Of a stretch of DNA of 64,000 nt, positions 20,528 through 52,299 are shown piece by piece. The notes under the pieces were generated by a model. That model was not told the origin of the DNA, did no database searches, and was given only the letters and a program-made list of their open reading frames with translations. Made by a program: the position numbers and the translations under genes. Position 1 is the stretch's first letter; the number at the start of each line of letters is the position of its first letter. Source of the DNA: Amphibalanus amphitrite (taxonomy: Eukaryota; Arthropoda; Thecostraca; Balanomorpha; Balanidae); assembly GCF_019059575.1 (NCBI RefSeq), contig NW_024882309.1:248001-312000 (forward strand), given 5' to 3'.

Positions 20528-20996
20528 TAGTAGAGCAGACATCACACGAAGGTTTTCCAACCAAGGAGAGGCGCTGTGGGTTGTAGGGTAGGTTTGTAGG
20601 TTTGTAGGTTGTAGGTTTGTAGGTTGTAGGTTAGGTTAGGTCAGGTTAGGTTAGGTTAGGTTAGGTTAGGTTTGTTTAGGTTTTGTTAGAAAGAAGTACA
20701 GTCCACAGCAGAAGTAATGTGGGGTTTCAGTCATGGGTATGTTCTGCCTCTGAAGCTTTGGAACAATTAGCCAGACTACAATAAAACTTTGAATGTAGCT
20801 TATATGTATCATCACCCTTGCAGCTGCAACTTTAGCTATTGACATCTTCTTTTCGATCACTCCGCTTTAAACAATCGCCAGTCAAAGCCAACCGTTGAGA
20901 TTGGTAAAACCCTACATTACTTTAGCGGTGGGATGTACCTCCAGGCATAGCGCCTCTCCTTGGTTGGAAAACCTTCGTGTGACGTCTGCTCTACTG
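20528..20996. mobile_element. Inverted-repeat element carrying telomeric pentamers
   Basis: The ends are inverted copies of about 45-50 bp sharing TCACACGAAGGTTTTCCAAC and CAAGGAGAGGCGCT (left 20528-20577, right 20948-20996). Just inside the left end is a TTAGG/TAGGTTTG array (20582-20690), including five clean GGTTA units in a row. The rest has no recognisable gene. Confidence 0.6.
20582..20690 (+). repeat. TTAGG interstitial telomeric repeat
   Basis: The array consists of GTAGGTTT words followed by GGTTAGGTCAGGTTAGG and more GGTTA units. It mixes TTAGG and TCAGG pentamers. It sits inside an inverted-repeat element, so it probably moved there as cargo. Confidence 0.75.
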
Positions 20997-25802: not shown

Positions 25803-27731
25803 CAGGGGCGTAGGCAGGGGGGGGCCACTGGGCCATGGCCCCCCCCCCCCCCTTGGGCGCCGAAGGCGCCCTTGCGATTGGAGGGCGCCGAAGGCGCCCT
25901 CCAATCGCGAATGCAATTGTGATAGAATCGAATCGAAAAACAATCGCGACTGGATACGTAAGCCTATATGATCGCTGCCTTCCTGCCCACTGATGCCCTC
26001 ATTTGATCGGTGTACTCCTACCTATTGGTGCTCTCCTGTAAATAGGCGCCCTCTCACCCGAAGGCGCCCTCCTGTAGGTCGCCACCCTGCTACACATTGC
26101 TACCATTCTGCTGGTCGGCGCCCTCATAATTATTGGCGCCCTCCTATCTATTGCGCCCTCATGTGAAATTTTTATGGCCGCCCTCCTCCCTTTTGGCACC
26201 CTCTTGTTGAGTGCCGCCCTTCTAGCCATTGGCGCCCTCCTACCTATTGGTTTCCTAGTCCCTCCTGTTGAATGCTAATCGGGGCCCTTCTACCTATTGG
26301 CGCCCTCGTGTTGATCGCCGCCCTCCTAACCACTGGCGCCCTCCTGTTGATCGCCGCCCTCCTATCCACTGGCACCTTCCTGTTAAATCGGCGCCCTCCT
26401 CACAGACGCCCTCCTGTTCAATGTCATCCTCGGGCAAAGGCGCCTTCCTCACCATTGCCACCCTCCTGTTAATCGTCACCCTTCCACTCATTGGCGACTT
26501 CCTGTTGATGACCGCCCTCCTACCCATTGGCGACCTCTTGTTGATCGCCACCTTCCTATCTATTGGTGCTCTCCTGTTCCTTGCCGCCCTCTCACCCATG
26601 GTGGCACCCTCCTGTTGATTGTTGATCGGAGCCTTCTTACCTATTGGCGCCCCCCTTTTGATCGCCGCCCTTCTACCCATTGGCGTCCAAGTTTCGGTGA
26701 TTGAAGGTGCTCAACACTGTATGCATCTGTGAGAAGGTCATGAGGGCTGGTCGAGGTAATTTGGATGAAAAGCCCGAGAAGACTAATCGATCTCATGAGG
26801 AACAGCCCTGTTATGGTTCCTCTTTCTGTTGCTGCCGCCTTCTCGTTGTGCGCTTGTGTTTACGCACCTCGCGCTCCGGTATCAATCCGATATGGTGATC
26901 TGGTGTCGGTGAGTATGCCACCGCCAATAAACTTTTCTAAATTTCTACATCGTCACCCATGGGCAAAGCTTTCTATACAGCTTGTGTGGCATCGGCCCCA
27001 CCAAACCTTAGGTATTTTTTACACCTTCAAATTTGGTAAAAGAGCGGGAAGAGCTTTGAACAGTGAGCACGCAAAAGATGTGCCTAAAAAGCGGAGGAAA
27101 AGGTTGTTTTCAAAAATTTCGCGCGCCTTCGGCGCAGCATTTCGCAAACTCTTCTTTACTAGGAACTTAGTACCTATGCCAATAACTTGCAACCTTTTTG
27201 TCACGTGTGAGATGAACCCGCGCCAGGAGGTTTCTTCAGACATGCGGTTAAAAAAGATCCGAAAAAGGTGCCACTACGTTACGAGCTTCCGTTTTTTTTC
27301 CTGGGGGAGAGAGGGAAGTGGGTGAGCGGGAGGGGCACACCTTTTGGTACATTGCTTTTACACGTGCTGTAAAAATGCAAACCATAGTCGCTAAAAGCAA
27401 GGTCATCAGGTCATGTCAAGTGCTCTAACTTAAAAAAAGTGCTCTAACTTAACTTAAATTGTCACTTAAGCTGAGCGGGTGACTTGACCTTTTTTGGCCT
27501 GGAGTAAAAACAAAATACACACGATGCCAAATCAATGCAGCATAACCTACCATACCAAGTCACGCAAAAAAAAAAACTGGTGGCGTGGTAAAAAAACGCA
27601 TCCACCCCCCCCCCCCCCCCCCCCCCACTGAGCGGATTTTTATCTCGCGACCGTATGGCGCCCTCCTGGGGTGAGGTGGCGCCCTCCAAACCCTTGGCCC
27701 CCCCCTTCGCGATTTTCTAAATACGCCGCTG
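25803..27731 (+). mobile_element. hAT-like element carrying a minisatellite, copy 1
   Basis: It begins CAGGGGCGTAGGCAGGGG and ends TACGCCGCTG, an imperfect hAT-type inverted pair, with a perfect 8-bp duplication GGTGTTTG on both sides (25795-25802 and 27732-27739). Near the left end is a GGCGCCGAAGGCGCC palindrome series, then a 36-bp minisatellite. The right half (about 26700-27700) resembles the left half of the copy at 52300-54779 in opposite orientation. A frame of 186 codons in the right half is not conserved throughout in the other copy, so I do not call a gene. Confidence 0.82.
25985..26695 (+). repeat. 36-bp minisatellite inside hAT copy 1
   Basis: About 19-20 imperfect copies of a unit such as GGCGCCCTCCTGTTGATCGC plus CGCCCTCCTACCTATT. 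The same unit in reverse orientation fills part of the element at 52300-54779. Confidence 0.8.
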
Positions 27732-28251: not shown

Positions 28252-28394
28252 TATAGGTAAATGTCCGTGAAGTTAGCGTCAGCAACAGCAACGAATACAG
28301 CGTCGGATTCAGAATCGCTTAAAAAACCGCCATCAGGTTAATTTGGGGACGGGGAACACGAATATGACATTTATTTTGCCCTAGCTCCCTTCCT

Positions 28395-31300
28395 TCATCC
28401 CTTAATCGTCCCTTAAAGGACGGGGCGCGTCAAAAGTGCCCCAAGGCTTCGTCTGATCGCCAAAATAATGGTCGCAATCGATTCCTCGGGTCAATATCTA
28501 ACCTCAGTCGAAGGTTCCAGACCTGTGCCTCCTATCCTTCATCCCTTAATCGTCCCTTAAAGGACGGGGCGCGTCAAAAGTGCCCCAAGGCTTCGTCTGA
28601 TCGCCAAAATAATGGTCGCAATCGATTCCTCGGGTCAATATCTAACCTCAGTCGAAGATTCCAGACCTGTGCCTCCTATCCTTCATCCCTTAATCGTCCC
28701 TTAAAGGACGGGGCGCGTCAAAAGTGCCCCAAGGCTTCGTCTGATCGCCAAAATAATGGTCGCACTCGATTCCTCGGGTCAATATCTAACCTCAGTCGAA
28801 GGTTCCAGACCTGTGCCTCCTATCCTTCATCCCTTAATCGTCCCTTAAAGGACGGGGCGCGTCAAAAGTGCCCCAAGGCTTCGTCTGATCGCCAAAATAA
28901 TGGTCGCAATCGATTCCTCGGGTCAATATCTAACCTCAGACGAAGGTTCCAGACCTGTGCCTCCTATCCTTCATCCCTTAATCGTCCCTTAAAGGACGGG
29001 GCGCGTCAAAAGTGCCCCAAGGCTTCGTCTGATCGCCAAAATAATGGTCGCAATCGATTCCCCGGGTCAATATTTAACCTCACTCGAAGGTTCCAGACCT
29101 GTGCCTCCTATCCTTCATCCCTTAATCGTCCCTTAAAGGACGGGGCGCGTCAAAAGTGCCCCAAGGCTTCGTCTGATCGCCAAAATAATGGTCGCAATCG
29201 ATTCCTCGGGTCAATATCTAGCCTCAGTCGAAGGTTCCAGACCTGTGCCTCCTATTCTTCATCCCTTAATCGTCCCTTAAAGGACGGGGCGCGCCAAAAG
29301 AGCCCCAAGGCTTCGTCTGATCGCCAAAATAATGGTCGCAATCGATTCCTCGGGTCAATATCTAACCTCAGTCGAAGGTTCCAGACCTGTGCCTCCTATC
29401 CTTCATCCCTTAATCGTCCCTTAAAGGACGGGGCGCGTCAAAAGTGCCCCAAGGCTTCGTCTGATCGCCAAAATAATGGTCGCAATCGATTCCTCGGGTC
29501 AATATCTAACCTCAGTCAAAGGTTCCAGACCTGTGCCTCCTATCCTTCATCCCTTAATCGTCCCTTAAAGGACGGGGCGCGTCAAAAGTGCCCCAAGGCT
29601 TCGTCTGATCGCCAAAATAATGGTCGCAATCGATTCCTCGGGTCAATATCTAACCTCAGTCGAAGGTTCCAGACCTGTGGCTCCTATCCTTCATCCCTTA
29701 ATCGTCCCATAAAGGACGGGGCGCGTCAAAAGTGCCTCAAGGCTTCGTCTGATCGCCAAAATAACGGTCGCAATCGATTCCTCGGGTCAATATCTAACCT
29801 CAGTCGAAGGTTCCAGACCTGTGCCTCCTATCCTTCATCCCTTAATCGTCCCTTAAAGGACGGGGCGCGTCAAAAGTGCCCCAAGGCTTCGTCTGATCGC
29901 CAAAATAATGGTTGAAATCGATTCCTCGGGTCAATATCTAACCTCAGTCGAAGGTTCCAGACCTGTGCCTCCTATCCTTCATCCCTTAATCGTCCCTTAA
30001 AGGACGGGGCGCATCAAAAGTGCCTCAAGGCTTCGTCTGATCGCCAAAATAATGCTCGCAATCAATTCCTCGGGTCAATATCTAACCTCAGTCGAAGGTT
30101 CCAGACCTGTGCCTCCTATCCTTCATCCCTTAATCGTTCCTTAAAGGACGGGTCGCGTCAAAAGTGCCCCAAGGCTTCGTCTGATCGCCAAAATAATGCT
30201 CGCAATCAATTCCTCGGGTCAATATCTAACCTCAGTCGAAGGTTCCAGACCTGTGCCTCCTATCCTTCATCCCTTAATCGTTCCTTAAAGGACGGGTCGC
30301 GTCAAAAGTGCCCCAAGGCTTCGTCTGATCGCCAAAAATATGGTCGCAATCGATTCCTCGGGTCAATATCTAACCTCAGTCGAAGGTTCCAGACCTGTGT
30401 CTCCTATCCTTCATCCCTTAATCGTCCCTTAATAGACAGGGCGCGTCAAAAGTGCCCCAAGGCTTCGTCTGATCGCCAAAATAATGGTCGCAATCGATTC
30501 CTCGGGTCAATATCTAACCTCAGTCGAAGGTTCCAGACCTGTGCCTCCTACCCTTCATCCCTTAATCGTCCCTTAAAGGACGGGGCGCGTCAAAAGTGCC
30601 CCAAGGCTTCGTCTAATCGCCAAAATAATGGTCGCAATCGATTCCTCGGGTCAATATCTAACCTCAGTCGTAGGTTCCAGACCTGTGTCTCCTATCCTTC
30701 ATCCCTTAACCCGCGCCCAGATGGGGTCTGCCGAGCAATGCGGTCTGATGGGGGGGGGGCCATTTTGGCCCCCCCCTCAGATCTCGAGAACCACGCAACA
30801 TAGCGACAAGCGGTAAACGGTGTTGGATAGCCCCAACGGGGAACTACCTTGTGACCCAATTTCATTGACCTCGGTCAAACCGATGACGTCACAGGTCAGG
30901 TCAAAGGTCGAATTTTCACCGTTTACAGGCATTTCAAGAAATGCGTTGTAAAATCGAGTAAAATGCATTTCATTGAAAATCATCGATGGGGAAATGATCT
31001 TCAAACACATATTTTGCTATTTGAGGTCACTGATACCAGGTCAGGTCACAGAGGTCAGGTCACTGGGGGGGGGGGGGGTCACAATATGAAAGTGTCGTGT
31101 GATACATGTTTTATGGTCCATTTTACATGACAAATGCGATTATGTGGGTCAGACAGACTTAAGGGCCAGCTTAGATCACGTTTTGGTCAAGGTCAGGTCA
31201 AGGTCAGGTCAAGGTCAGGTCAAATTAGGTCAAATTTCAAACATGATATTTTTGCATAAAATGGGTATTGATTCGATGCCGCTCGTCACGGGGAGTTCAA

Positions 31301-33252
31301 TGGTGGTCTCCGTTTTGCGCTACGAGGTCTAGAATTGCTAAAAATTGAGTTCAAAAATTTGACGTCATCAATTTTTAACAGTTTTTTCGCTATAACTTGG
31401 CCAAAAAAGAGGTATCGATCTAAAATTTGGTGTGTATATCGAAGAGCGCAGGGACTATCACATATATTCCGTTTTTTTTCGAAATTCGAAAAAAAATTGG
31501 AATTTTTTTGAGTTTTTCTAAAAAAAATCAATTTTTTTGATTTTTGGGGGTCACAATCCCAAAATTTCGAAAATCCGAGATGGCAGTTTTGTAGCGCCGT
31601 CTTTTCTTTACACAACCACATAAAGAACTTTAAAATTGCTTGTTAACTGTAGAATTGGTGAGCGTTTCAAGATGTCATGTTTTTTGCTCATTTTTACTCG
31701 AACATGACCTAAGTTTGACCTCAATAACTCCTGACCTGAGGTGACCTGTGACTTGAAATTTTGTGTGAAGGTGTCAAATTGATGCCCGGTAAGGTACCCA
31801 AAATTTGGCGGTGCTGCGCGCTGCCGTTTTCGCGCTATTTAAGAAAAACCACAGGGGGGGCCAAAATGGCCCCCCCATCAGGGCGCGGGTTAATCGTCCC
31901 TTAAAGGACAGGGCGCGTCAAAAGTGCCCCAAGGCTTCGTCTGATCGCCAAAATAATGGTCGCAATCGATTCCTCGGGTCAATATCTAACCTCAGTCGAA
32001 GGTTCCAGACCTGTGCCTCCTATCCTTCATCCCTTAATCGTCCCTTAAAGGACGGGGCGCGTCAAAAGTGCCCCAAGGCTTCGTCTGATCGCCAAAATAA
32101 TGGTCGCAATCGATTCCTCGGGTCAATATCTAACCTCAGTCGTAGGTTCCAGACCTGTGCCTCCTATCCTTCATCCCTTAATCGTCCCTTAAAGGACGGG
32201 GCGCGTCAAAAGTGCCCCAAGGCTTCGTCTGATCGCCAAAATAATGGTCGCAATCGATTCCTCGGGTCAATATCTAACCTCAGTCGAAGGTTCCAGACCT
32301 GTGCCTCCTATCCTTCATCCCTTAATCGTCCCTTAAAGGACGGGGCGCGTCAAAAGTGCCTCAAGGCTTCGTCTGATCGCCAAAATAATGGTCGCAATCG
32401 ATTCCTCGGGTCAATATCTAACCTCAGTCGAAGGTTCCAGACCTGTGCCTCCTATCCTTCATCCCTTAATCGTCCCTTAAAGGACGGGGCGCGTCAAAAG
32501 TGCCCCAAGGCTTCGTCTGATCGCCAAAATAATGGTCGCAATCGATTCCTCGGGTCAATATCTAACCACAGTCGAAGGTTCCAGACCTGTGCCTCCTATC
32601 CTTCATCCCTTAATCGTCCCTTAAAGGACGGGGCGCGTCAAAAGTGCCTCAAGGCTTCGTCTGATCGCCAAAATAACGGTCGCAATCGATTCCTCGGGTC
32701 AATATCTAACCTCAGTCGAAGGTTCCAGACCTGTGCCTCCTATCCTTCATCCCTTAATCGTCCCTTAAAGGACGGGGCGCGTCAAAAGTGCCCCAAGGCT
32801 TCGTCTGATCGCCAAAATAATGGTTGCAATCGATTCCTCGGGTCAATATCTAACCTCAGTCGAAGGTTCCAGACCTGTGCCTCCTATCCTTCATCCCTTA
32901 ATCGTCCCTTAAAGGACGGGGCGCGTCAAAAGTGCCCCAAGGCTTCGTCTGATCGCCAAAATAATGGTCGCAATCGATTCCTCGGGTCAATATCTAACCT
33001 CAGTCGAAGGTTCCAGACCTGTGCCTCCTATCCTTCATCCCTTAATCGTCCTTTAAAGGACGGGGCGCGTCAAAAAAGTGCCCCAAGGGTTCGTCTGATC
33101 GCCAAAATAATGGTCGCAATCGATTCCTCGGGTCAATATCTAACCTCAGTCGAAGGTTCCAGACCTGTGCCTCCTATCATTCATCCCTTAATCGTCCCTT
33201 AAAGGACGGGGCGCGTCAAAAGTGCCCCAAGGCTTCGTCTGATCGCCAAAAT
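28395..33252 (+). repeat. 144-bp satellite, left arm
   Basis: Near-identical 144-bp monomers (for example CTTAATCGTC at 28401, 28545, 28689) run to 30705 and resume in register at 31890, after the TTAA insertion. Landmarks in each unit are GGACGGGGCGCGTC, CCCCAAGGCTTCGTC and ATCGATTCCTCGGG. As 144 is a multiple of three, one frame stays open for long stretches; this follows from the period and does not indicate coding. Confidence 0.93.
30706..31893. mobile_element. TTAA element H inside the satellite
   Basis: It starts TTAACCCGCGCCCAGATGGG and ends CATCAGGGCGCGGGTTAA. Hairpin modules with a CCATTTTGG or CCAAAATGG core flanked by G- and C-runs lie near both ends (about 30749-30777 and 31854-31878). 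The interior has three AAGGTCAGGTC units in a row (about 31190-31220) and TGACGTCA twice. Intact satellite units nearby show the empty site CCCTTAATCG, so the TTAA duplication is direct. Confidence 0.85.
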
Positions 33253-33270
33253 CAGACGTCCGCGACCAAT

Positions 33271-36200
33271 ATTTGGCGATCAGACGAAGTCTTGGGGCAC
33301 TTTTGACGCGCACCGTCCTTTAAAGGACGATTAAGGGATGAAGGATAGGAGGCACAGGTCTGGAACCTTCGACTGAGGTTAGATATTGACCCGAGGAATC
33401 GATTGCGACAATTATTTTGGCGATCAGACGAAGCCTTGGGGCACTTTTGACTCGCCCCGTCCTTTAAGGGAGGATTAAGGGATGAAGGATAGGAGGCACA
33501 GGTCTGGAACCTTCGACTGAGGTTAGATATTGACCCGAGGAATCGATTGCGACCATTATTTTGGCGATCAGACGAAGCCTTGGGGCACTTTTGACGCGCC
33601 CCGTCCATTAAGGGACGTTTAAGGGATGAAGGATAGGAGGCACGGGTCTGGAACCTTCGACTGAGGTTAGACATTGACCCGAGGAATCGATTGCGACCAT
33701 TATTTTGGCGATCAGACGAAGCCTTGGGGCACTTTTGACGCGCCCCGTCCTTTAAGGGACGATTAAGGGATGAAGGATAGGAGGCACAGGTCTGGAACCT
33801 TCGACTGAGGTTAGATATTGACCCGAGGAATCGATTGCGACCATTATTTTGGCGATCAGACGAAGCCTTGGGGCACTTTTGGCGCGCCCCGTCCTTTAAG
33901 GGACGATTAAGGGATGAAGGATAGGAGGCACAGGTCTGGAACCTTCGACTGAGGTTAGATATTGACCCGAGGAATCGATTGCGACCATTATTTTGGCGAT
34001 CAGACGAAGCCTTGGGGCACTTTTGACGCGCCCCGTCCTTTAAGGGACGATTAAGGGATGAAGGATAGGAGGCACAGGTCTGGAACCTTCGACTGAGGTT
34101 AGATATTGACCCGAGGAATCGATTGCGACCATTATTTTGGCGATCAGACGAAGCCTTGGGGCACTTTTGGCGCGCCCCGTCCTTTAAGGGACGATTAAGG
34201 GATGAAGGATAGGAGGCACAGGTCTGGAACCTTCGACTGAAGTTAGATATTGACCCGAGGAATCGATTGCGACCATTATTTTGGCGATCAGACGAAGCCT
34301 TGGGGCACTTTTGACGCGCCCCGTCCTTTAAGGGACGATTAAGGGATGAAGGATAGGAGGCACAGGTCTGGAACCTTCGACTGAGGTTAGATATTGACCC
34401 GAGGAATCGATTGCGACCATTATTGTGCCGATCAGACGAAGCCTTGGGGCACTTTTGACGCGCCCCGTCCTTTAAGGGACGATTAAGGGATGAAGGTTAG
34501 GAGGCACTGGTCTGGAACCTTCGACTGAGGTTAGATATTGACCCTAGGAATAGATTGCTACCATTATTTTGGCGATCAGACGAAGCCTTGGGGCACTTTT
34601 GACGCGCCCCGTCCTTTAAGGGACAATTAAGGGATGAAGGATAGGAGGCACAGGTCTGGAACCTTCGACTGAGGTTAGATATTGACCCGAGGAATCGATT
34701 GCGACCATTATTTTGGCGATCAGACGAAGCCTTGGGGCACTTTTGACTCGCCCCGTCCTTTAAGGGAGGATTAAGGGATGAAGGATAGGAGGCACAGGTC
34801 TGGAACCTTCGACTGAGGTTAGATATTGACCCGAGGAATCGATTGCGACCATTATTTTGGCGATCAGACGAAGCCTTGGGGCACTTTTGACGCGCCCCGT
34901 CCATTAAGGGACGTTTAAGGGATGAAGGATAGGAGGCACGGGTCTGGAACCTTCGACTGAGGTTAGACATTGACCCGAGGAATCGATTGCGACCATTATT
35001 TTGGCGATCAGACGAAGCCTTGGGGCACTTTTGACGCGCCCCGTCCTTTAAGGGACGATTAAGGGATGAAGGATAGGAGGCACAGGTCTGGAACCTTCGA
35101 CTGAGGTTAGATATTGACCCGAGGAATCGATTGCGACCATTATTTTGGCGATCAGACGAAGCCTTGGGGCACTTTTGGCGCGCCCCGTCCTTTAAGGGAC
35201 GATTAAGGGATGAAGGATAGGAGGCACAGGTCTGGAACCTTCGACTGAGGTTAGATATTGACCCGAGGAATCGATTGCGACCATTATTTTGGCGATCAGA
35301 CGAAGCCTTGGGGCACTTTTGACGCGCCCCGTCCTTTAAGGGACGATTAAGGGATGAAGGATAGGAGGCACAGGTCTGGAACCTTCGACTGAGGTTAGAT
35401 ATTGACCCGAGGAATCGATTGCGACCATTATTTTGGCGATCAGACGAAGCCTTGGGGCACTTTTGGCGCGCCCCGTCCTTTAAGGGACGATTAAGGGATG
35501 AAGGATAGGAGGCACAGGTCTGGAACCTTCGACTGAGGTTAGATATTGACCCGAGGAATCGATTGCGACCATTATTTTGGCGATCAGACGAAGCCTTGGG
35601 GCACTTTTGACGCGCCCCGTCCTTTAAGGGACGATTAAGGGATGAAGGATAGGAGGCACAGGTCTGGAACCTTCGACTGAGGTTAGATATTGACCCGAGG
35701 AATCGATTGCGACCATTATTGTGCCGATCAGACGAAGCCTTGGGGCACTTTTGACGCGCCCCGTCCTTTAAGGGACGATTAAGGGATGAAGGTTAGGAGG
35801 CACTGGTCTGGAACCTTCGACTGAGGTTAGATATTGACCCTAGGAATAGATTGCTACCATTATTTTGGCGATCAGACGAAGCCTTGGGGCACTTTTGACG
35901 CGCCCCGTCCTTTAAGGGACAATTAAGGGATGAAGGATAGGAGGCACAGGTCTGGAACCTTCGACTGAGGTTAGATATTGACCCGAGGAATCGATTGCGA
36001 CCATTATTTTGGCGATCAGACGAAGCCTTGGGGCACTTTTGACTCGCCCCGTCCTTTAAGGGAGGATTAAGGGATGAAGGATAGGAGGCACAGGTCTGGA
36101 ACCTTCGACTGAGGTTAGATATTGACCCGAGGAATCGATTGCGACCATTATTTTGGCGATCAGACGAAGCCTTGGGGCACTTTTGACGCGCCCCGTCCAT

Positions 36201-39200
36201 TAAGGGACGTTTAAGGGATGAAGGATAGGAGGCACGGGTCTGGAACCTTCGACTGAGGTTAGACATTGACCCGAGGAATCGATTGCGACCATTATTTTGG
36301 CGATCAGACGAAGCCTTGGGGCACTTTTGACGCGCCCCGTCCTTTAAGGGACGATTAAGGGATGAAGGATAGGAGGCACAGGTCTGGAACCTTCGACTGA
36401 GGTTAGATATTGACCCGAGGAATCGATTGCGACCATTATTTTGGCGATCAGACGAAGCCTTGGGGCACTTTTGGCGCGCCCCGTCCTTTAAGGGACGATT
36501 AAGGGATGAAGGATAGGAGGCACAGGTCTGGAACCTTCGACTGAGGTTAGATATTGACCCGAGGAATCGATTGCGACCATTATTTTGGCGATCAGACGAA
36601 GCCTTGGGGCACTTTTGACGCGCCCCGTCCTTTAAGGGACGATTAAGGGATGAAGGATAGGAGGCACAGGTCTGGAACCTTCGACTGAGGTTAGATATTG
36701 ACCCGAGGAATCGATTGCGACCATTATTTTGGCGATCAGACGAAGCCTTGGGGCACTTTTGGCGCGCCCCGTCCTTTAAGGGACGATTAAGGGATGAAGG
36801 ATAGGAGGCACAGGTCTGGAACCTTCGACTGAGGTTAGATATTGACCCGAGGAATCGATTGCGACCATTATTTTGGCGATCAGACGAAGCCTTGGGGCAC
36901 TTTTGACGCGCCCCGTCCTTTAAGGGACGATTAAGGGATGAAGGATAGGAGGCACAGGTCTGGAACCTTCGACTGAGGTTAGATATTGACCCGAGGAATC
37001 GATTGCGACCATTATTGTGCGATCAGACGAAGCCTTGGGGCACTTTTGACGCGCCCCGTCCTTTAAGGGACGATTAAGGGATGAAGGTTAGGAGGCACTG
37101 GTCTGGAACCTTCGACTGAGGTTAGATATTGACCCTAGGAATAGATTGCTACCATTATTTTGGCGATCAGACGAAGCCTTGGGGCACTTTTGACGCGCCC
37201 CGTCCTTTAAGGGACAATTAAGGGATGAAGGATAGGAGGCACAGGTCTGGAACCTTCGACTGAGGTTAGATATTGACCCGAGGAATCGATTGCGACCATT
37301 ATTTTGGCAATCAGACGAAGCCTTGGGGCACTTTTGACGCGCCCCGTCCTTTAAGGGACGATTAAGGGATGAAGGATAGGAGGCACAGGTCTGGAACCTT
37401 CGACTGAGGTTAGATATTGACCCGAGGAATCGATTGCGACCATTATTTTGGCGATCAGACGAAGCCTTGGGGCACTTTTGACGCGCCCCGTCCTTTAAGG
37501 GACGATTAAGGGATGAAGGATAGGAGGCACAGGTCTGGAATCTTCGACTGAGGTTAGATATTGACCCGAGAAATCGATTGCGACCATTATTTTGGCGATC
37601 AGACGAAGCCTTGGGGCACTTTTGACGCGCCCCGTCCTTTAAGGGACGATTAAGGGATGAAGGATAGGAGGCACAGGTCTGGAACCTTCGACTGAGGTTA
37701 GATATTGACCCTAGGAATCGATTGCTACCATTATTTTGGCGATCAGACGAAGCCTTGGGGCACTTTTAACGCGCCCCGTCCTTTAAGGGACGATTAAGGG
37801 ATGAAGGATAGGAGGCAGAGGTCTGGAACCTTCGACTGAGGTTAGATATTGACCCGAGGAATCGATTGCGACCATTATTTTGGCGATCAGACGAAGCCTT
37901 GGGGCACTTTTGACGCGCCCCGTCCTTTAAGGGACGATTAAGGGATGAAGGATAGGAGGCACAGGTCTGGAACCTTCGACTGAGGTTAGATATTGACCCG
38001 AGGAATCGATTGCGACCATTATTTTGGCGATCAGACGAAGCCTTGGGGCACTTTTGACGCGCCCCGTCCTTTAAGGGACGATTAAGGGATGAAGGATAGG
38101 AGGCACAGGTCTGGAAGCTTCGACCGAGGTTAGATATTGACCCGAGGAATCGATTGCGACCATTATTTTGGCGATCAGACGAAGCCTTGGGGCACTTTTG
38201 ACGCGCCCCGTCCTTTAAGGGACGATTAAGGGATGAAGGATAGGAGGCACAGGTCTGGAACCTTCGACTGAGGTTAGATATTGACCCGAGGAATCGATTG
38301 CGACCATTATTTTGGCGATCAGACGAAGCCTTGGGGCACTTTTGACGCGCCCTGTCCTTTAAGGGACGATTAAGGGATGAAGGATAGGAGGCACAGGTCT
38401 GGAACCTTCGACTGAGGTTAGATATTGACCCGAGGAATCGATTGCGACCATTATTTTGGCGATCAGACGAAGCCTTGGGGCACTTTTGACGCGCCCCGTC
38501 CTTTAAGGGACGATTAAGGGATTAAGGATAGGAGGCACAGGTCTGGAACCTTCGACTGAGGTTAGATATTGACCCGAGGAATCGATTGCTACCATTATTT
38601 TGGCGATCAGACGAAGCCTTGGGGCACTTTTGACGCGCCCCGTCCTTTAAGGGACGATTAAGGGATGAAGGATAGGAGGCACAGGTCTGGAATCTTCGAC
38701 TGAGGTTAGATATTGACCCGCGGAATCGATTGCGACCATTATTTTGGCAATCAGACGAAGCCTTGGGGCACTTTTGACGCGCCCCGTCCTTTAAGGGACG
38801 ATTAAAGGATGAAGGATAGGAGGCACAGGTCTGGAACCTTCGACTGAGCCTAGATATTGACCCGAGGAATCGATTGCGACCATTATTTTGGCGATCAGAC
38901 GAAGCCTTGGGGCACTTTTGACGCGCCCCGTCCTTTAAGGGACGATTAAGGGATGAAGGATAGGAGGCACAGGTCTGGAACCTTCGACTGAGGTTAGATA
39001 TTGACCCGAGGAATCGATCGCGACCATTATTTTGGCGATCAGACGAAACCTTGGGGCCTTTTTGACGCGCCCCGTCCTTTAAGGGACGATTAAGGGATGA
39101 AGGTTAGGAGGCACAGGTCTGGAACCTTCGACTGAGGTTAGATGTTGACCCGAGGAATCGATTGCGACCATTATTTTGGCGATCAGACGAAGCCTTGGGG

Positions 39201-42200
39201 CACTTTTGACGCGCCCCGTCCTTTAAGGGACGATTAAGGGATGAAGGATAGGAGGCACAGGTCTGGAACCTTCGACTGAGGTTAGATATTGACCCGAGGA
39301 ATCGATTGCGACCATTATTTTGGCGATCAGACGAAGCCTTGGGGCACTTTTGGCGCGCCCCGTCCTTTAAGGGACGATTAAGGGATGAAGGATAGGAGGC
39401 ACAGGTCTGGAACCTTCGACTGAGGTTAGATATTGACCCGAGGAATCGATTGCGACCATTATTTTGGCGATCAGACGAAGCCTTGGGGCACTTTTGACGC
39501 GCCCCGTCCTTTAAGGGACGATTAAGGGATGAAAGATAGGAGGCACAGGTCTGGAACCTTCGACTGAGGTTAGATATTGACCCGAGGAATCGATTGCGAC
39601 CATTATTGTGCCGATCAGACGAAGCCTTGGGGCACTTTTGACGCGCCCCGTCCTTTAAGGGACGATTAAGGGATGAAGGTTAGGAGGCACAGGTCTGGAA
39701 CCTTCGACTGAGGTTAGATATTGACCCTAGGAATAGATTGCTACCATTATTTTGGCGATCAGACGAAGCCTTGGGGCACTTTTGACGCGCCCCGTCCTTT
39801 AAGGGACAATTAAGGGATGAAGGATAGGAGGCACAGGTCTGGAACCTTCGACTGAGGTTAGATATTGACCCGAGGAATCGATTGCGACCATTATTTTGGC
39901 AATCAGACGAAGCCTTGGGGCACTTTTGACGCGCCCCGTCCTTTAAGGGACGATTAAGGGATGAAGGATAGGAGGCACAGGTCTGGAACCTTCGACTGAG
40001 GTTAGATATTGACCCGAGGAATCGATTGCGACCATTATTTTGGCGATCAGACGAAGCCTTGGGGCACTTTTGACGCGCCCCGTCCTTTAAGGGACGATTA
40101 AGGGATGAAGGATAGGAGGCACAGGTCTGGAATCTTCGACTGAGGTTAGATATTGACCCGAGGAATCGATTGCGACCATTATTTTGGCGATCAGACGAAG
40201 CCTTGGGGCACTTTTGACGCGCCCCGTCCTTTAAGGGACGATTAAGGGATGAAGGATAGGAGGCACAGGTCTGGAACCTTCGACTGAGGTTAGATATTGA
40301 CCCTAGGAATCGATTGCTACCATTATTTTGGCGATCAGACGAAGCCTTGGGGCACTTTTAACGCGCCCCGTCCTTTAAGGGACGATTAAGGGATGAAGGA
40401 TAGGAGGCACAGGTCTGGAACCTTTGACTGAGGTTAGATATTGACCCGAGGAATCGATTGCGACCATTATTTTGGCGATCAGACGAAGCCTTGGGGCACT
40501 TTTGACGCGCCCCGTCCTTTAAGGGACTATTAAGGGATGAAGGATAGGAGGCACAGGTCTGGAACCTTCGACTGAGGTTAGATATTGACCCGAGGAATCG
40601 ATTGCGACCATTATTTTGGCGATCAGACGAAGCCTTGGGGCACTTTTGACGCGCCCCGTCCTTTAAGGGACGATTAAGGGATGAAGGATAGGAGGCACAG
40701 GTCTGGAATCTTCGACCGGGGTTAGATATTGACCCGAGGAATCGATTGCGACCATTATTTTGGCGATCAGACGAAGCCTTGGGGCACTTTTGACGCGCCC
40801 CGTCCTTTAAGGGACGATTAAGGGATGAAGGATAGGAGGCACAGGTCTGGAACCTTCGACTGAGGTTAGATATTGACCCGAGGAATCGATTGCGACCATT
40901 ATTTTGGCGATCAGACGAAGCCTTGGGGCACTTTTGACGCGCCCCGTCCTTTAAGGGACGATTAAGGGATGAAGGATAGGAGGCACAGGTCTGGAACCTT
41001 CGACTGAGGTTAGATATTGACCCGAGGAATCGATTGCGACCATTATTTTGGCGATCAGACGAAGCCTTGGGGCACTTTTGACGCGCCCCGTCCTTTAAGG
41101 GACGATTAAGGGATTAAGGATAGGAGGCACAGGTCTGGAACCTTCGACTGAGGTTAGATATTGACCCGAGGAATCGATTGCTACCATTATTTTGGCGATC
41201 AGACGAAGCCTTGGGGCACTTTTGACGCGCCCCGTCCTTTAAGGGACGATTAAGGGATGAAGGATAGGAGGCACAGGTCTGGAATCTTCGACTGAGGTTA
41301 GATATTGACCCGCGGAATCGATTGCGACCATTATTTTGGCAATCAGACGAAGCCTTGGGGCACTTTTGACGCGCCCCGTCCTTTAAGGGACGATTAAGGG
41401 ATGAAGGATAGGAGGCACAGGTCTGGAACCTTCGACTGAGGTTAGATATTGACCCGAGGAATCGATTGCGACCATTATTTTGGCGATCAGACGAAGCCTT
41501 GGGGCACTTTTGACGCGCCCCGTCCTTTAAGGGACGATTAAGGGATGAAGGATAGGAGGCACAGGTCTGGAACCTTCGACTGAGGTTAGATATTGACCCG
41601 AGGAATCGATCGCGACCATTATTTTGGCGATCAGACGAAGCCTTGGGGCACTTTTGACGCGCCCCGTCCTTTAAGGGACGATTAAGGGATGAAGGTTAGG
41701 AGGCACAGGTCTGGAACCTTCGACTGAGGTTAGATGTTGACCCGAGGAATCGATTGCGACCATTATTTTGGCGATCAGACGAAGCCTTGGGGCATTTTTG
41801 ACGCGCCCCGTCCTTTAAGGGACGATTAAGGGATGAAGGATAGGAGGCACAGGTCTGGAATCTTCGACTGAGGTTAGATATTGACCCGCGGAATCGATTG
41901 CGACCATTATTTTGGCAATCAGACGAAGCCTTGGGGCACTTTTGACGCGCCCCGTCCTTTAACCCGCGCGGCGCTGGGGTCTCCAGCCGAACGCGCGGGG
42001 CTGGGGGGGGGTAAATTTTACCCCCCCTGTTATCTCCCGAACTAATGGTCCGATTTGGAAAATTCAAACGCCAATCGAAAGCTCTTATCACGAACTACTA
42101 AAAACATGTACTTAATTTAAAGTTTGAGGTCAAGGTCAAGGTCAGGTCAAGGGTACAAATTGCTAGTTTCTACAGTATCGGCCTTGCACCGTAGTTGCCG

Positions 42201-43590
42201 AAGAATGGAGTCATGGACTGAGACTGATCGCCCAAAACGTGTTCTTAGGCTACCAAGACAATATTCGTTGCATACAATATCATTCAGAGGTCAAGGTCAA
42301 GGTCAGGTCAGGTCAGGTCAGGTCACCAAAAAACAAAATATAGAAAAGGGCATGTGCGACACATGTTTTATGGGTCATTTTACTCATAGAATTCAATAGG
42401 CACACTCAATAAGTGATATGGACCACCTCTGGATGAATTTCAGGTCGAGGTCAGGTCAAGGTCAGGTCAAGTGAGGTCAAATTTTGAAGTTGGTTGTTAA
42501 GGCCTAAAAAGGTGTCTATCTGATGCAGTTTTTCACGGCAAATCGAATGGTGCTATTTTTGTTTCCGTACGAGGTCTAGAACTTCAAAAAAAGTCATTTT
42601 TCAAAAAATTTGTGTGTCGTGACGTCATAAAATTTTGAATAACTCCCACATTTTTGAACCGATTCTTCTAAAATTTGGTATGTATGTGCACATAGACAAC
42701 TTCTCTGACATATATTCCGGTTTTTTCGATAGACTCAAAATTTTGGATTTTATAATGATTTTCCCAAAAAAGTCAGTTTTTTGAAAAACTTTAGGCCAAA
42801 ATCCAAAATTTTCAAAAAACCGAGATAGCCATTTAATAGACAAAGTAAAATTACGTATAAACTTTTTTGTTACGTCTTGATTCCTTTAAAAATGAAGATG
42901 TTAGCGGCGTTTGAACTTTTGCCGTTTTTGAGGCGAAAATGGCGAACATGACGTCACTAAAACGTCAATTTCTCAAAAATTTTCCGACGGATTTCGCTGA
43001 AATTTTCAGGGAACGTGTCAAATTGATGTAAGAAAAGGTACTGAAAGTTTGGCGGCGCTGCGCGCCGCCGTTTCTGAGATATCGCAAAAATTCGCGAGGG
43101 GGGGTAAAATTTACCCCCCCCAGCCCCGCGCGGGTTAAGGGACGATTAAAGGATGAAGGATAGGAGGCACAGGTCTGGAACCTTCGACTGAGCCTAGATA
43201 TTGACCCGAGGAATCGATTGCGACCATTATTTTGGCGATCAGACGAAGCCTTGGGGCACTTTTGACGCGCCCCGTCCTTTAAGGGACGATTAAGGGATGA
43301 AGGATAGGAGGCACAGGTCTGGAACCTTCGACTGAGGTTAGATATTGACCCGAGGAATCGATCGCGACCATTATTTTGGCGATCAGACGAAGCCTTGGGG
43401 CACTTTTGACGCGCCCCGTCCTTTAAGGGACGATTAAGGGATGAAGGTTAGGAGGCACAGGTCTGGAACCTTCGACTGAGGTTAGATGTTGACCCGAGGA
43501 ATCGATTGCGACCATTATTTTGGCGATCAGACGAAGCCTTGGGGCATTTTTGACGCGCCCCGTCCTTTAAGGGACGATTAAGGGATGAAG
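33271..43590 (-). repeat. 144-bp satellite, right arm, with higher-order repeats
   Basis: These are the same monomers as on the left, inverted. Variant units recur at fixed distances: a block with CCCTAGGAATAGATTGCTACC is at about 34541, 35837 and 37132 (1296 bp = 9 units) and again at about 39724 (2592 bp = 18 units). Other markers, such as GGGATTAAGGATAGG (38518, 41110) and GACCCGCGGAATC (38715, 41307, 41884), support an 18-unit period. A TTAA element splits the array at 41959-43138. Confidence 0.9.
41959..43138. mobile_element. TTAA element I inside the satellite
   Basis: It starts TTAACCCGCGCGGCGCTGG and ends CAGCCCCGCGCGGGTTAA. Hairpin modules with a TAAATTTTA or TAAAATTTA core between G- and C-runs lie near both ends (about 42003-42028 and 43098-43121). 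The interior has AGGTCAGGTCAGGTCAGGTC (about 42304) and TGACGTCA. The satellite sequence CCTTTAAGGGACG is the empty site. Confidence 0.85.
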
Positions 43591-43731
43591 GAAGGGAGTT
43601 AGGGCAAAATAAATGTCATATTCGTGTTCCCCGTCCCCAAATTGACCTGATGGCGGTTTTTGAAGCGATTCTGAATCCGTTGCTGTATTCGTTGCTGTTG
43701 CTGACGCTAACTTCACGGACATTATAGGTAA

Positions 43732-45402: not shown

Positions 45403-48207
45403 ATGTCCGTCAAGACAGCCCATATTCAGCCCAGATTCGGGACACCTCCGATCAAGCTGAAACTCGCACACAATGTAGGCCATGACATGCCCAATCCACA
45501 GTCCGAGTCATTTGGCGGCACTCCCAGCCGTTTGACCTACAGAGGTCAGCAAAGGTCACGTGGCCCAAATTTGCACAGCAGATTGTGGCCCACCCAGTAG
45601 AGCTAGAGCGCTAAAAATGGCACCAATCGACTCGCCAGCATCTAATCTTACTTTCCCAAAACTCATTTGACCTCTCAAGGTCATGCGATGACCTAGGGTC
45701 ATTTGTGGGCTATGTCGAAAATACACTTGCACAGCAGTTTTCGAGTAGAGGAATTGACCGAATTCCAAATCAAAGCACATCATCGGGTAGCCCATAGGCC
45801 GTAATAACTTTCCTTAAAAATCGCTTCTCGATGTGTGACCCCGTTTGGCCTCAGCATGTCAAAAGGTACAAATAAACGACACTCGATACGTCGCAGCCCG
45901 GATTCAGCCCAGATTCGGGACATCTCCGATCAAGGTGAAACTCGCACACGATGTAGGTCCTGACATGCCCAATCCACATTCCGAGTCATTCGGCGGCACT
46001 CCCAGCCGTTTGACCTACAGATGTCAGCAAAGGTCACGTGGCCCAAATTTGCACAGCAGATTGTGGCCCACCCAGTAGAGCTAGAGCGCTTAAAATGGCA
46101 CCAATCGACTCGTCAGCATCTAATCTTACTTTCCCAACACTCATTTGACCTCTCAACGTCATGCGATGACCTAAGGTCATTTGTGGGCTATGTCGAAAAT
46201 ACACTTGCAGAGCAGTATTCGAGTAGAGGGATTGACCGAATTCCAAATCAAAGCACATCATCGGGTAGCCCATGGCCCGTAGAAACTTTCCTTAAAAACC
46301 GCTTCTCGATATGTGACCCCTTTTGACCTCGGCAGGTCAAAAGGTACAAATAAACGACACTCCATACGTCGCAGCCCGGATTCAGCCCAGATTCGGGACA
46401 TCTCCGGGCAAGGTGAAACTCGCACACGATGTAGGTCCTGACATGCCCAATCCACATTCCGAGTCATTCGGCGGCACTCCCAGCCGTTTGACCTACAGAG
46501 GTCAGCAAAGGTCACGTGGCCCAAATTTGCACAGCAGATTGTGGCCCACCCAGTAGAGCTAGAGCGCTTAAAATGGCACCAATCGACTCGTCAGCATCTA
46601 ATCTTACTTTCCCAACACTCATTTGACCTCTCAACGTCATGCGATGACCTAAGGTCATTTGTGGGCTATGTCGAAAATACACTTGCACAGCAGTTTTCGA
46701 GTAGAGGAATTGACCGAATTCCAAATAAAAGCACATCATCAAGTAGCCCATAGGCCGTAGTAACTTTCCTTAAAAACCGCTTCTCGATATGTGACCCCGT
46801 TTGACCTCGGCAGGTCAAAATGTACAAATAAACGACACTCCATACGTCGCAGCCCGGATTCAGCCCAGATTCGGGACATCTCGTATCAAGCTGAAACTCG
46901 CACACGATGTAGGTACTGACATGCCCAATCCACAGTCCGAGTCATTCGGCGGCACTCCCAGCCGTTTGACCTACAGAGGTCAGCAAAGGTCACGTGGCCC
47001 AAATTTGCACAGCAGATTGTGACCCACCCAGAAGAGCTAGAGCGCTAAAAATGGCACCAATCGACTCTCCAGCATCTAATCTTACTTTCCCAAAACTCAT
47101 TTGACCTCTCAAGGTCATGCGATGACCTAGGGTCATTTGTGGGCTATGTCGAAAATACACTTGCACAGCAGTTTTCGAGTAGAGGAATTGACCGAATTCC
47201 AAATTAAAGCACATCATCGGGTAGCCCATAGCCCGTAGTAACTTTCCTTAAAAATCCCTTCTCGATGTGTGACCCCGTTTGACCTCGGCAGGTCAAAAGG
47301 TACAAATAAACGACACTCCATACCTACGTCGCAGCCCGGATTCAGCCCAGATTCGGGACATCTCCGATCAAGCTGAAACTCGCACACAATGTAGGTCCTG
47401 ACATGCCCAATCCACAGTCCGAGTCATTTGGCGGCACTCCCAGCCGTTTGACCTACAGAGGTCAGCAAAGGTCACGTGGCCCAAATTTGCACAGCAGATT
47501 GTGGCCCACCCAGTAGAGCTAGAGCGCTAAAAATGGCACCACTCGACTCGCCAGCATCTAATCTTACTTTCCCAAAACTCATTTGACCTCTCAAGGTCAT
47601 GCGATGACCTAGGGTCATTTGTGGGCTATGTCGAAAATACACTTGCACAGCAGTTTTCGAGTATAGGAATTGACCGAATTCCAAATCAAAGCACATCATC
47701 GGGTAGCCCATAGGCCGTAGTAACTTTTCTTAAAAATCGCTTCTCGATGTGTGACCCCGTTTGACCTCGGCAGGTCAAAAGGTACAAATGAACGACACTC
47801 GATACGTCGCAGCCCGGATTCAGCCCAGATTCGGGACATCTCCGATCAAGGTGAAACTCGCACACGATGTAGGTCCTGACATGCCCAATCCACATTCCGA
47901 GTCATTCGGTGGCACTCCCAGCCGTTTGACCTACAGAGGTCAGCAAAGGTCACGTGGCCCAAATTTGCACAGCAGATTGTGGCCCACCCAGTAGAGCTAG
48001 AGCGCTTAAAATGGCACCAATCGACTCGTCAGCATCTAATCTTACTTTCCCAACACTCATTTGACCTCTCATCTTCATGCGATGACCTAAGGTCATTTGT
48101 GGGCTATGTCGAAAATACACTTGCACAGCAGTTTTCGAGTAGAGGAATTGACCGAATTCCAAATCAAAGCACATCATCGGGTAGCCCATAGGCCGAAGTA
48201 ACTTTCC
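45403..48207 (+). repeat. 478-bp tandem repeat
   Basis: Six units begin at about 478-482-bp spacing (anchor ATTCGGGACA near 45433, 45912, 46390, 46869, 47352 and 47830), with high identity. Each carries AGGTCAGCAAAGGTCA, and AAGGTCATGCGATGACCT or a close variant. Short open frames recur once per unit but have no protein features. Confidence 0.9.
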
Positions 48208-49241
48208 TTAACCCGCGCACCGACGGGGGGGGGCGGATATCCGCCCCCCCCCCCCTGAGGTTTTTCGCGAATAGCGGGAAAACCGCGGCGCGAAATTTAG
48301 TACGACTATTCCCTCATCAATTTTACACATGGTGTGCAAGTTTGAACCTCCTAACTTTAAAGGTCAGGTCACCAGGTCACTTTGAATGACCCAACCACTT
48401 CAAAGTGACTTGGGTCACTTTGAATGACCCAAGTCACTTTTTTGCAACTTTGTCACCGTGCCAGAGCTACAGTAGATGTCGGAGGCCTTTGAAAGTCGCA
48501 GGGTGTTATAAGGTCATTAGTAGCTACAATTTGTATATCTCGGAATTTCGATATCGGTGACCTAAGGTCAGGTCAATTTCGCGACCTCCCCATTATAAGT
48601 CAATGGGGGAAAAATCAACTCCCTATTTTTACCACTAAAACGGGTCGGAATGGCCCCATATACCATACATGACTTCATATACGATCAACCTTCACTACCT
48701 TGAGGTCTGTTTTGCTGTTGGGCAGCTGTGAGGTCATGTGACGTCATCAAAGGTCACCAAAGGTTTTTGGCCAATAACTCCGTACAGGAACAAGATACAG
48801 CCGCGTGGATGGTCTCATTGTGTTCCGCTCGTCAAGACGCATCGAATGATATACATGATGACCTCGAGGTCACGTGACCTGAGGTCAACCTTTGACCTTG
48901 ACCTTTCGAGGTCAACATATATATCATTCGATGCGGATTGACGAGAGAATCACGATGATGCCCTTAGTTTGCTCCTATCTTGACTAATTCGCACGTTATT
49001 CGAGAAAAACTCTCCATATCTAGCGCCGCCATTTTGAATTTTTCGACCCCTGTGACGTCATCTTTGACCTGACCTGAAAATGACCTTTGTAAAAATTGTA
49101 GATCTTGACCGTGCGTATCCGATGCCGTTTACCGCTTGTCGCTATCTTGCTTCGTTCTCGAGATCTCAGGGGGGGGGGCGGTCATCCGCCCCCTCCCGTC
49201 GGTGCGAAGTTGGCGCAGACCCCCGTCGGTGCGCGGGTTAA
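48208..49241. mobile_element. TTAA element J inside the 478-bp array
   Basis: It starts TTAACCCGCGCACCGACGGG and ends CGTCGGTGCGCGGGTTAA. Hairpin modules with a CGGATATCCG or CGGTCATCCG core between G- and C-runs lie near both ends (about 48225-48255 and 49170-49196). Neighbouring units show the empty site TTTCCTTAAAAACCGC. The interior is AGGTCA/TGACCT-rich, with paired CTTTGAATGACCCAA repeats near 48382-48440. Confidence 0.85.
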
Positions 49242-49675
49242 AAACCGCTTCTCGATATGGGACCCCGTTTGACCTCGGCAGGTCAAAATGTACAAATAAA
49301 CGACACTCCATACGTCGCAGCACGGATTCAAATGACAAATGACAAATGACCTTAGGTCATCGCATGACCTTGAGGGGTCAAATGGGTAATGGGAAAGTAA
49401 GATAAGATGCTGGCGAGTCGATTGGTGCCATTTTAGCGCTCTAGCTCTACTGGGTGGCCCACAATCTGCTGTGCAAATTTGGGCCACGTGACTTTTGCTG
49501 ACCTCTGTAGGTCAAACGGCTGGGAGTGCCGCCGAATGACTTGTACTGTGGATTGGGCATGTCATGGCCTACATTGTGTGCGAGTTTCAGCTTGATCGGA
49601 GGTGTCCCGAATCTGGGCTGAATCCGGGCTGAATCTGGGCTGAATATGGTCTGTCTTGACGGACATCCTTATGCC

Positions 49676-51651: not shown

Positions 51652-52299
51652 TACTGACGGGAGAGTGACGGGAGAGCTGGAACAGACGAACACACGGCGA
51701 CGCGTCGTTACGGGCCGAAACACCTGCACCTCAGCAATAGGATTAACCTTCGCCCCAGTGGGGGGGGGGGCATATGTTACCACCCTGTCGCGTTTTTTGC
51801 GTGTAAATAAAAAACCGCGGCGCGTAGCGCCGCGCCGCTTGGGGTAGCTTTTGGTACATCAATTTTGGACAATGTGTGAAATTTTTGACCCCAGGTCATG
51901 CCAGGTCAGGTCACCAGGTCAAGTTAACTGACCAAGCCCAAAAAAAAGTTTGCAATCATGTCCAGCCTGCAGTGTTTGTCGGAAAGGTTTTAAACTTGGT
52001 GGATTGCATGATGTTATGGGCGCCTACAATTTGTATATCTCGGGTTTTTTATATCCGTGACCTAAGGTCAGGTCAGTGGCGTGACCTTTCCATTACAAGT
52101 CAATGGATAGAAAATGAAAATGCCTGTAGATCCGTGTGTACGCATAGGAACAGTCCAAATATTTCAGAATCACAATGATTTGGACCACCCGTGATGACCA
52201 AGGTGTCATTTTTGCTGATAGCCTCTAGAAAGGTCATCCGAGGTCATTTGAGGCTACAAACAGATTTTTGCCAATAACTCGAGATTGGGAAGAGATAGA

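What the first reader, a model, noticed from the sequence alone, without database searches (positions are those of the whole stretch)
28261..43722. A 15.5-kb foldback transposon whose arms are a 144-bp satellite
The whole satellite block is bounded by inverted ends (ATGTCCGTGAAG...) and an exact 9-bp target duplication, TATAGGTAA. So the satellite moved, or was seeded, as part of a transposon rather than growing only in place. The orientation switch near 33260 makes it one giant inverted repeat. Direct observation: ends, duplication and orientation. Inference: mobilisation in trans by an unseen transposase. Drosophila FB and some Mutator-like foldback elements show comparable subrepeat arms and 9-bp duplications.
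Basis: partly seen in the sequence, partly recalled or inferred. Interest (0 to 1): 0.88.

Follow-up and report, generated by a model that had tools for sequence, protein, structure and literature searches.

The report
Satellite DNA packaged as jumping palindromes
Two blocks of tandemly repeated satellite DNA in this animal-like genome are jumping genes whose bodies are almost nothing but satellite repeats arranged as a large inverted repeat, and dozens of relatives with the same ends sit elsewhere in the genome.

Summary
Window 28261-43722 (W1) is a 15,462-bp inverted-repeat element flanked by an exact 9-bp direct repeat, TATAGGTAA. A second element, 45403-49666 (W2), has the same 12-bp ends, the exact repeat CCTTATGCC and a 478-bp satellite arm. 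Of 854 exact end matches in the genome, 100 were listed; I fetched all 31 facing pairs within 30 kb among them. With W1 and W2, and one insertion seen twice counted once, 27 of 32 elements have an exact 9-bp duplication, two have one mismatch and three have none; mismatched ends agree in 0 of 990. Elements read cap, satellite array, orientation switch, inverted array, cap; inserts aside, they are satellite. W1 and two elements at unrelated sites share an identical switch-point sequence, so the palindrome itself was apparently mobile. Best reading: non-autonomous foldback transposons resembling Rehavkus, Tetris and FB, moved in trans. No transposase with these ends was found. Satellite-only palindromes reaching 27 kb, in related 143/144-bp groups and a 478-bp group, look like a new variant of a known kind.

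The parts
28252..28260 (.). left target-site duplication TATAGGTAA of element W1
   Evidence: exact match to 43723-43731
28261..28384 (+). left cap of W1 (terminal inverted repeat outside the array, 124 bp), starts ATGTCCGTGAAG
   Evidence: inverted copy at 43599-43722; cap of the same type on the 8 family A elements and a close variant on the 11 of A2
28385..30709 (+). left arm, 144-bp satellite, first part
30710..31889 (.). nested element with CCCGCGC...GCGCGGG ends between duplicated TTAA (30706-30709, 31890-31893); not part of W1
31890..33255 (+). left arm, 144-bp satellite, second part
33256..33261 (.). palindrome centre ACGTCC (junction CCAAAATCAGACGTCCGCGACCA); identical junction in L012 and L047/L048
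33262..41962 (-). right arm, 144-bp satellite, 60.4 copies, with extra similarity at spacings of 9 and 18 monomers
41963..43134 (.). second nested TTAA element (TTAA 41959-41962 and 43135-43138); not part of W1
43135..43598 (-). right arm, outermost 3.2 satellite copies
43599..43722 (-). right cap of W1
43723..43731 (.). right target-site duplication TATAGGTAA
45394..45402 (.). left target-site duplication CCTTATGCC of the second element, W2
45403..49666 (.). W2: second foldback element, ends ATGTCCGTCAAG; left arm 478-bp repeat (45416-48211 and 49238-49330), right arm only 290 bp (49342-49631)
48212..49237 (.). TTAA element nested in W2 (TTAA 48208-48211 and 49238-49241)
49667..49675 (.). right target-site duplication CCTTATGCC of W2

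Best explanation
W1 (28261-43722) and W2 (45403-49666) are copies of a dispersed family of non-autonomous cut-and-paste foldback transposons. Each copy consists of two short inverted caps carrying the cleavage ends (ATGTCCGT[G/C]AAG) and, between them, a tandem satellite array that switches orientation once (unequal arms). A transposase encoded elsewhere recognises the caps and inserts the whole palindrome with a 9-bp staggered cut. Between jumps the arms lengthen, shorten and homogenise by unequal exchange, so copies of one lineage keep the caps and sometimes the centre but not the arm lengths. Shown: ends, duplications, one architecture in the elements fetched, one centre shared by elements at unrelated sites, no coding sequence of their own seen. 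Inferred: cut-and-paste, trans mobilisation, a Mutator/Rehavkus-type enzyme (from the 9-bp duplication and satellite termini), unequal exchange as the cause of arm turnover.
For: Exact 9-bp duplications at 27 of 32 elements, 2 more with one mismatch; 0 of 990 mismatched end pairs agree. In the 100 listed places, 31 facing pairs of ends lie within 30 kb and no outward-facing pair does (read from the listing). By eye, both ends of each pair are of the same subfamily. Counting runs of 30 bp or more, one orientation switch in each of 33 (12,998 bp inside L035/36 are unread; the short centre of L022 goes back and forth). Stretches over 60 bp that are neither cap nor satellite occur in 9 of 33 elements (12 stretches), besides the unread part of L035/36; 10 of the 12 have inverted ends of their own by eye, those of L023 and L041/42 do not. 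A 4,001-bp sample of the unread part is satellite with two cap cores. W1, L012 and L047/48 share the centre but have unrelated flanks and different duplications. The array frame shows no consistent excess of changes at third codon positions.
Against: No transposase-bearing copy with these ends was found. Of 111 Mutator-domain (PF10551) matches, 15 were read as 3.3-kb loci, and none of the 15 has facing ends; one MULE family here has other ends. L013, L014 and L016 have no duplication at these ends but inverted flanks. Monomer order is not detectably shared between W1 and its same-centre relatives, so the shared centre could reflect conversion between copies. The tool's own control for the 12-bp pattern, read backwards, is high (300 and 280 against 426 and 428). 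Array lengths rest on the assembly.
Confidence: 0.88

Rival explanations
1. Ordinary satellite that grew in place; the inverted ends and 9-bp repeats are coincidence or by-products of local inversion.
For: Arms are long, unequal and homogenised: left-against-right divergence is under 5% in 21 of 24 elements of groups A, A2 and B that have full monomers in both arms (which drops monomers under 75% identity).
Against: Exact 9-bp duplications at 27 of 32 sites with the same ends, 0 of 990 in the cross-pair control, and one centre at three unrelated sites.
Confidence: 0.03
2. The satellite was spread by another route (extrachromosomal circles, gene conversion), and a small transposon captured pieces of it many times.
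For: Most elements have their own centre (28 different junctions among 32 elements, counted), so palindromes were formed or re-formed many times; monomer order is not conserved between W1 and its same-centre copies. Whether satellite also exists outside caps was not tested (the monomer search did not complete).
Against: In subfamilies A and B both cap and monomer are homologous, the monomer in the same rotation, so cap and satellite were probably joined in their common ancestor. Family B arms contain internal copies of the cap core, 5-16 in each of the 7 elements read in full.
Confidence: 0.08
3. The palindromes are assembly artefacts (hairpin reads folded back on themselves).
For: L013, L014 and L016 have flanks that are inverted copies of each other, and one insertion appears twice in opposite orientation on one contig (L017/L018).
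Against: 29 of 32 elements have a direct, not inverted, 9-bp duplication with at most one mismatch, and their left and right flanks are not inverted copies (L023 has a 56-bp and L025 a 19-bp direct similarity between its flanks, out of register with the duplication); a folded read cannot make that. The inverted flanks of L013 and L016 end after about 150 and 76 bp.
Confidence: 0.02

Closest known systems
Rehavkus (Mutator-related; e.g. Rehavkus-1_TC of Tribolium)
   Same: 9-bp duplications; a minisatellite or satellite in the termini; Rehavkus-1_TC carries a 164-bp satellite in its inverted termini (passages of PMC6446971 and PMC10218199).
   Different: Rehavkus-1_TC is a 9.5-kb element with arrays of mostly 5 and 8 monomers, and the group has a PHD-finger transposase (same passages); the elements here show no coding core, and single arms reach 65 repeat copies (L045/46). 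Known hosts are arthropods and annelids; the host here is unnamed.
Tetris of Drosophila virilis
   Same: Non-autonomous foldback, satellite-length repeats (about 220 bp) in the inverted termini, 8-10 bp duplications, no transposase found, satellite arrays of up to 66 copies (PMC4079207: abstract, section 10 and first part of section 16 read).
   Different: Tetris has a middle domain and only three structurally complete copies, with terminal repeats of up to 1,735 bp; the authors suggest that larger arrays may have disrupted transposition. Here arrays of several kb lie inside elements with intact ends and duplications.
Drosophila FB and Tm1 of root-knot nematodes
   Same: Composite inverted repeats with tandem subrepeats of varying number, 9-bp duplications (Tm1 passages, PMC3169594; FB itself recalled).
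   Different: Subrepeats are about 14 bp in Tm1 (FB recalled as 10-31 bp), not 143-478 bp; Tm1 has transposase-coding and histone-hairpin members.
Muta1 and other Aedes MULEs
   Same: MULEs with 8-9 bp duplications and subterminal tandem repeats; Muta1 is classed as a type-2 foldback element (passages of PMC5225508).
   Different: Subterminal repeats are 9-15 bp; Muta1 encodes its own transposase and is active.

Membership tests
Mutator-like elements (MULE superfamily) | 8-11 bp target-site duplication | tested here: met
   exact 9 bp in 27 of 32 elements; definition from passages
Mutator-like elements (MULE superfamily) | long terminal inverted repeats | tested here: met
   124/132-bp caps plus inverted arrays (A, A2, B); family C cap only 35 bp plus array
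Mutator-like elements (MULE superfamily) | MULE transposase acting on these ends | tested here: inconclusive
   111 PF10551 matches in the genome, 150 of 204 candidates scored; 0 of the 15 loci read (3.3 kb each) have facing ends; one family has other ends
Rehavkus | 9-bp target-site duplication and satellite or minisatellite in the termini | tested here: met
   definition from passages
Rehavkus | transposase with PHD finger | not tested
   search for PF00628 in the genome was sent and never answered
Foldback (FB-type) elements | inverted repeats built of tandem subrepeats of variable number | tested here: met
   33 of 33 elements, 4 subfamilies; L025 holds less than one full monomer per arm
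piggyBac/Kolobok (TTAA) elements | TTAA duplication at the element's ends | tested here: not met
   seen at the nested inserts, not at W1 or W2; that TTAA marks these groups is recalled
Protein-coding repeat array | third-position excess of substitutions in the long open frame | tested here: not met
   changes by position mod 3 (third codon position of the open frame listed first): W1 61/56/49, L012 40/30/33, L047/48 91/79/81; L029 20/53/15 and L033/34 67/32/77 are uneven, in opposite ways

The most novel reading that the evidence does not exclude
Satellite and transposon are one replicating entity here. A coreless palindrome of ~144-bp repeats is both cargo and body of the element, has kept monomer length (143/144 bp) and the link of cap to monomer while the monomers diverged to 50% identity between subfamilies, and repeatedly re-forms its palindrome centre (28 different junctions among 32 elements), for example by template switching between inverted arms during gap repair after excision. 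Jumping would then be a main source of new satellite loci in this genome.
Probability: 0.35. Interest if true: 0.78.

Novelty: new variant of a known kind. Interest (0 to 1): 0.62.

Why it matters
Whether satellites seed transposons or transposons seed satellites is an open question, often argued from fragments. Here one genome offers many insertion sites, most marked by a duplication, of satellite-only elements ranging from less than one full monomer per arm (L025) to 91 counted monomers (L045/46), and probably more in the part-read 27-kb element. Array growth, loss and palindrome formation can thus be compared copy by copy. Larger arrays were suggested to have disrupted transposition of Tetris; here six elements of 12-27 kb, W1 among them, have intact ends and exact duplications.

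Tried and rejected
Coding array: rejected, no consistent third-position excess. Mirror symmetry of variants about the centre or from the caps, expected if one arm were a fresh copy of the other: not consistent in the 18 elements tested (ratio to the mean 0.82-1.14 centre-anchored, 0.74-1.14 cap-anchored); blocks of 9 monomers match strongly at other offsets in L029 and L027. Collinear monomer order between W1 and its same-centre relatives: not found; weak (0.83) for L030/L035. The FLYWCH-type MULE of this genome as the source of the enzyme: its ends are GAGTCCCC...CACCCG (the FLYWCH label is recalled from its look, no call). Relation of the 478-bp monomer to the 143/144-bp ones: within the range of 100 shuffles. 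A cap-derived origin of the A and B monomers, as proposed for Tetris: no signal above 200 shuffles. The same test for group C is void, because the piece that I took as its cap ran into the array. Three facing pairs of ends more than 200 kb apart in the listing were not treated as elements. One search cut most right ends at the wrong base and was replaced. One search cut two right flanks wrongly (25 of 32 and 0 of 1,052); one search is the corrected count (27 of 32 and 0 of 990).
Full report
What was claimed and what is there. The finding names 28261-43722 as a foldback transposon made of a 144-bp satellite. The ends, the 9-bp direct repeat TATAGGTAA on both sides and the orientation switch at 33256-33261 are all present. 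The two ends are inverted copies over 588 bp at 97.6%. Each arm is interrupted by a TTAA-flanked element with CCCGCGC...GCGCGGG ends. Without them the element is about 13.1 kb, with 3,691 bp of satellite on the left and 9,165 bp on the right.

A second element in the window. At 45403-49666 the same 12-bp end (with C in place of G at one position) opens and closes an element flanked by the exact 9-bp repeat CCTTATGCC. Its left arm is a 478-bp tandem repeat; its right arm is only 290 bp; it too has a nested TTAA element.

The family in the genome. The window lies in an unnamed 807.6-Mb assembly of 2,644 contigs. The exact end ATGTCCGTSAAG occurs 426 times forward and 428 times reverse; the tool's control, the pattern read backwards, occurs 300 and 280 times, which is high. 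Equal base use would give about 96 per strand (my arithmetic). The first 100 places were listed. In that list 31 facing pairs lie within 30 kb and no outward-facing pair does; I fetched all 31, leaving 17 kb inside the largest unread at that point. Of the 8 end loci returned with sequence (L001-L008), 8 carry a family cap and satellite, among them the 4 that are in no facing pair. With the two window elements there are 33; L017 and L018 are one insertion seen twice in opposite orientation on one contig, so 32 are counted.

Target-site duplications. 27 of 32 have an exact 9-bp duplication, two (L031/32, L043/44) have one mismatch, and three (L013, L014, L016) have none; none of the exact ones extends to 10 bp. 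Matching the left 9-mer of one element with the right 9-mer of another gave 0 of 990, and none with a single mismatch. In the three exceptions the flanks are inverted copies of each other, for about 150 bp in L013 and 76 bp in L016 and for at least 89 bp in L014; I do not know why. Two further elements have direct similarity between their flanks, out of register with the duplication: L023 (56 bp) and L025 (19 bp).

Architecture. Counting runs of at least 30 bp, every element reads cap, array, one switch, inverted array, cap. The 67-bp centre of L022 goes back and forth on a finer scale. Lengths run from 455 to 26,929 bp, median 6,469 (n = 32). Four groups appear: A (144 bp, 8 elements with W1), A2 (144 bp, 11), B (143 bp, 8) and C (478 bp, 5 with W2). 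Caps are about 124, 124, 132 and 35 bp long. Stretches over 60 bp that are neither cap nor satellite occur in 9 of 33 elements, 12 stretches in all; 10 of the 12 have inverted ends of their own by eye and look like nested transposons, those in L023 and L041/42 do not. In L035/36 12,998 bp remain unread, and a 4,001-bp sample from the middle is satellite with two cap cores. Apart from the array frames, no long frame that could be a transposase was seen in the non-satellite stretches; the longest, 212 codons in L037/38, lies in a nested stretch and was not searched against families. The open frame of the W1 array has no clear third-position excess of changes.

Common ancestry of A and B. The A and B caps align over their length (score 10 against a mean of -15.5, SD 4.4, in 500 shuffles, beyond the first 20 bp), and the monomers align best in the same rotation (12.5 against -9.2, SD 3.0, in 40 shuffles). 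Monomer identity is 72 of 144 overall, 40 of the first 60 and 20 of the last 60, so the homology rests on part of the monomer. Cap and satellite were therefore probably joined before A and B split. The arms of B contain internal copies of the cap core, 5 to 16 in each of the 7 elements read in full and 5 in the first-read parts of L035/36; those listed start at cap position 15, 16 or 21 and so lack the cleavage end. In L021 (group C) two short internal pieces of its cap occur. In the A elements none was found; in A2 only the displaced right cap of L020 was hit.

Did the palindrome itself move? The junction at the centre of W1 (CCAAAATCAGACGTCCGCGACCA) is identical in L012 and L047/48 and is not part of the monomer consensus; 89-100 bp of flank on each side of the three are unrelated and the duplications differ. 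L030 and L035/36 share another centre in mirror image, and L013 and L014 a third. The other centres differ, 28 in all among 32 elements, by BLAST-based phase. Monomer variants do not show conserved order between W1 and its same-centre copies, and only weakly for L030/L035, nor consistent mirror symmetry within 18 elements. Left and right arms of one element are under 5% apart in 21 of 24 elements of A, A2 and B, and closer to each other than to other elements in 18 of 24 (7 of 7 in A, 5 of 9 in A2, 6 of 8 in B); group C is more divergent (monomers under 75% identity were dropped). The reading that fits is: transposition keeps caps and centre, and unequal exchange then rewrites the arms. The step from these patterns to unequal exchange is inference. 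The W1 right arm shows extra similarity at spacings of 9 and 18 monomers, the mark of block duplication.

Which transposase? Duplications of 9 bp and satellite termini point to the Mutator clan and within it to Rehavkus (passages of PMC6446971 and PMC10218199). The genome has at least 111 Mutator-domain matches, so enzymes of the right kind exist, but none was found between these ends in the 15 short loci read. One MULE family was delimited from five loci and has other ends. The search for a PHD-finger enzyme did not complete. The superfamily is therefore likely, not shown.

Known or new. Tetris (PMC4079207; abstract, section 10 and the first part of section 16 read) is a foldback with 220-bp repeats in its termini that seeded satellite arrays of up to 66 copies. 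Rehavkus-1_TC carries a 164-bp satellite in its inverted termini (passages). Tm1 and Muta1 have short subrepeats (passages). Two reviews of satellites from transposons were seen in passages; both cite Tetris. The principle is thus in print. The searches listed no paper whose title or opening abstract describes satellite-only palindromic elements of this size; I opened only the papers named here and PMC13359780 (passages), so a description inside another listed paper is possible. What I have not seen described is a family whose whole body is an inverted satellite of up to 27 kb, at dozens of sites with exact duplications, in several related satellites and one other. I call it a new variant of a known kind.

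Noticed in passing
L013 (C7:481369-482609), L014 (C9:1727889-1729554), L016 (C15:1952997-1955468), with L065-L068: Elements whose flanks are inverted copies of each other beyond the usual ends (about 150 bp in L013, 76 bp in L016, at least 89 bp in L014); in L013 and L016 the outer sequence looks alike (GGTAA...). Possibly a subfamily with longer ends or an insertion inside another inverted-repeat element.
   Followed up: partly
window 14512-16488, 30710-31889, 41963-43134, 48212-49237; candidate 4705-5840: TTAA-flanked elements with CCCG... ends and runs of G, several with AGGTCA motifs; the one at 14512-16488 is itself a near-palindrome (932-bp arms, 97%). Similar TTAA inserts lie inside L015, L024 and L037.
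   Followed up: partly
window 25803-27731 and 52300-54779: Two copies of another repeat in opposite orientation (pieces of 85-95% identity), with 18/36-bp tandem repeats, lying outside the two satellite elements on either side.
   Followed up: no
G000:C16:1592743-1597707 and 1931121-1936085 (L017, L018): The same insertion occurs twice in opposite orientation 338 kb apart on one contig, with identical flanks over the 89 bp compared: a large inverted duplication or an assembly join.
   Followed up: partly
window 50089-51858 (- strand): 589-codon open frame with CCCH zinc fingers and a RING finger (Pfam).
   Followed up: partly
window 3188-3333 and 20575-20684: TAGGT-type tandem repeats resembling the arthropod telomere motif (recalled); TATAGGTAA, the duplicated target of W1, also occurs at 3303 in one of them.
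   Followed up: no
family B elements such as L011, L015, L023, L027 and L030: Higher-order repeat lengths of 448, 591, 734 and 877 bp equal 2 to 5 monomers of 143 bp plus 162 bp, which fits one unit containing the cap core.
   Followed up: partly
L022 centre (element positions 501-620): The switch point contains short pieces in alternating orientation, as if the strand had been switched more than once.
   Followed up: no
25 target-site duplications counted: No strong base preference within the 9-mer, but A at 28 of 50 positions five bases outside it (both sides pooled).
   Followed up: no
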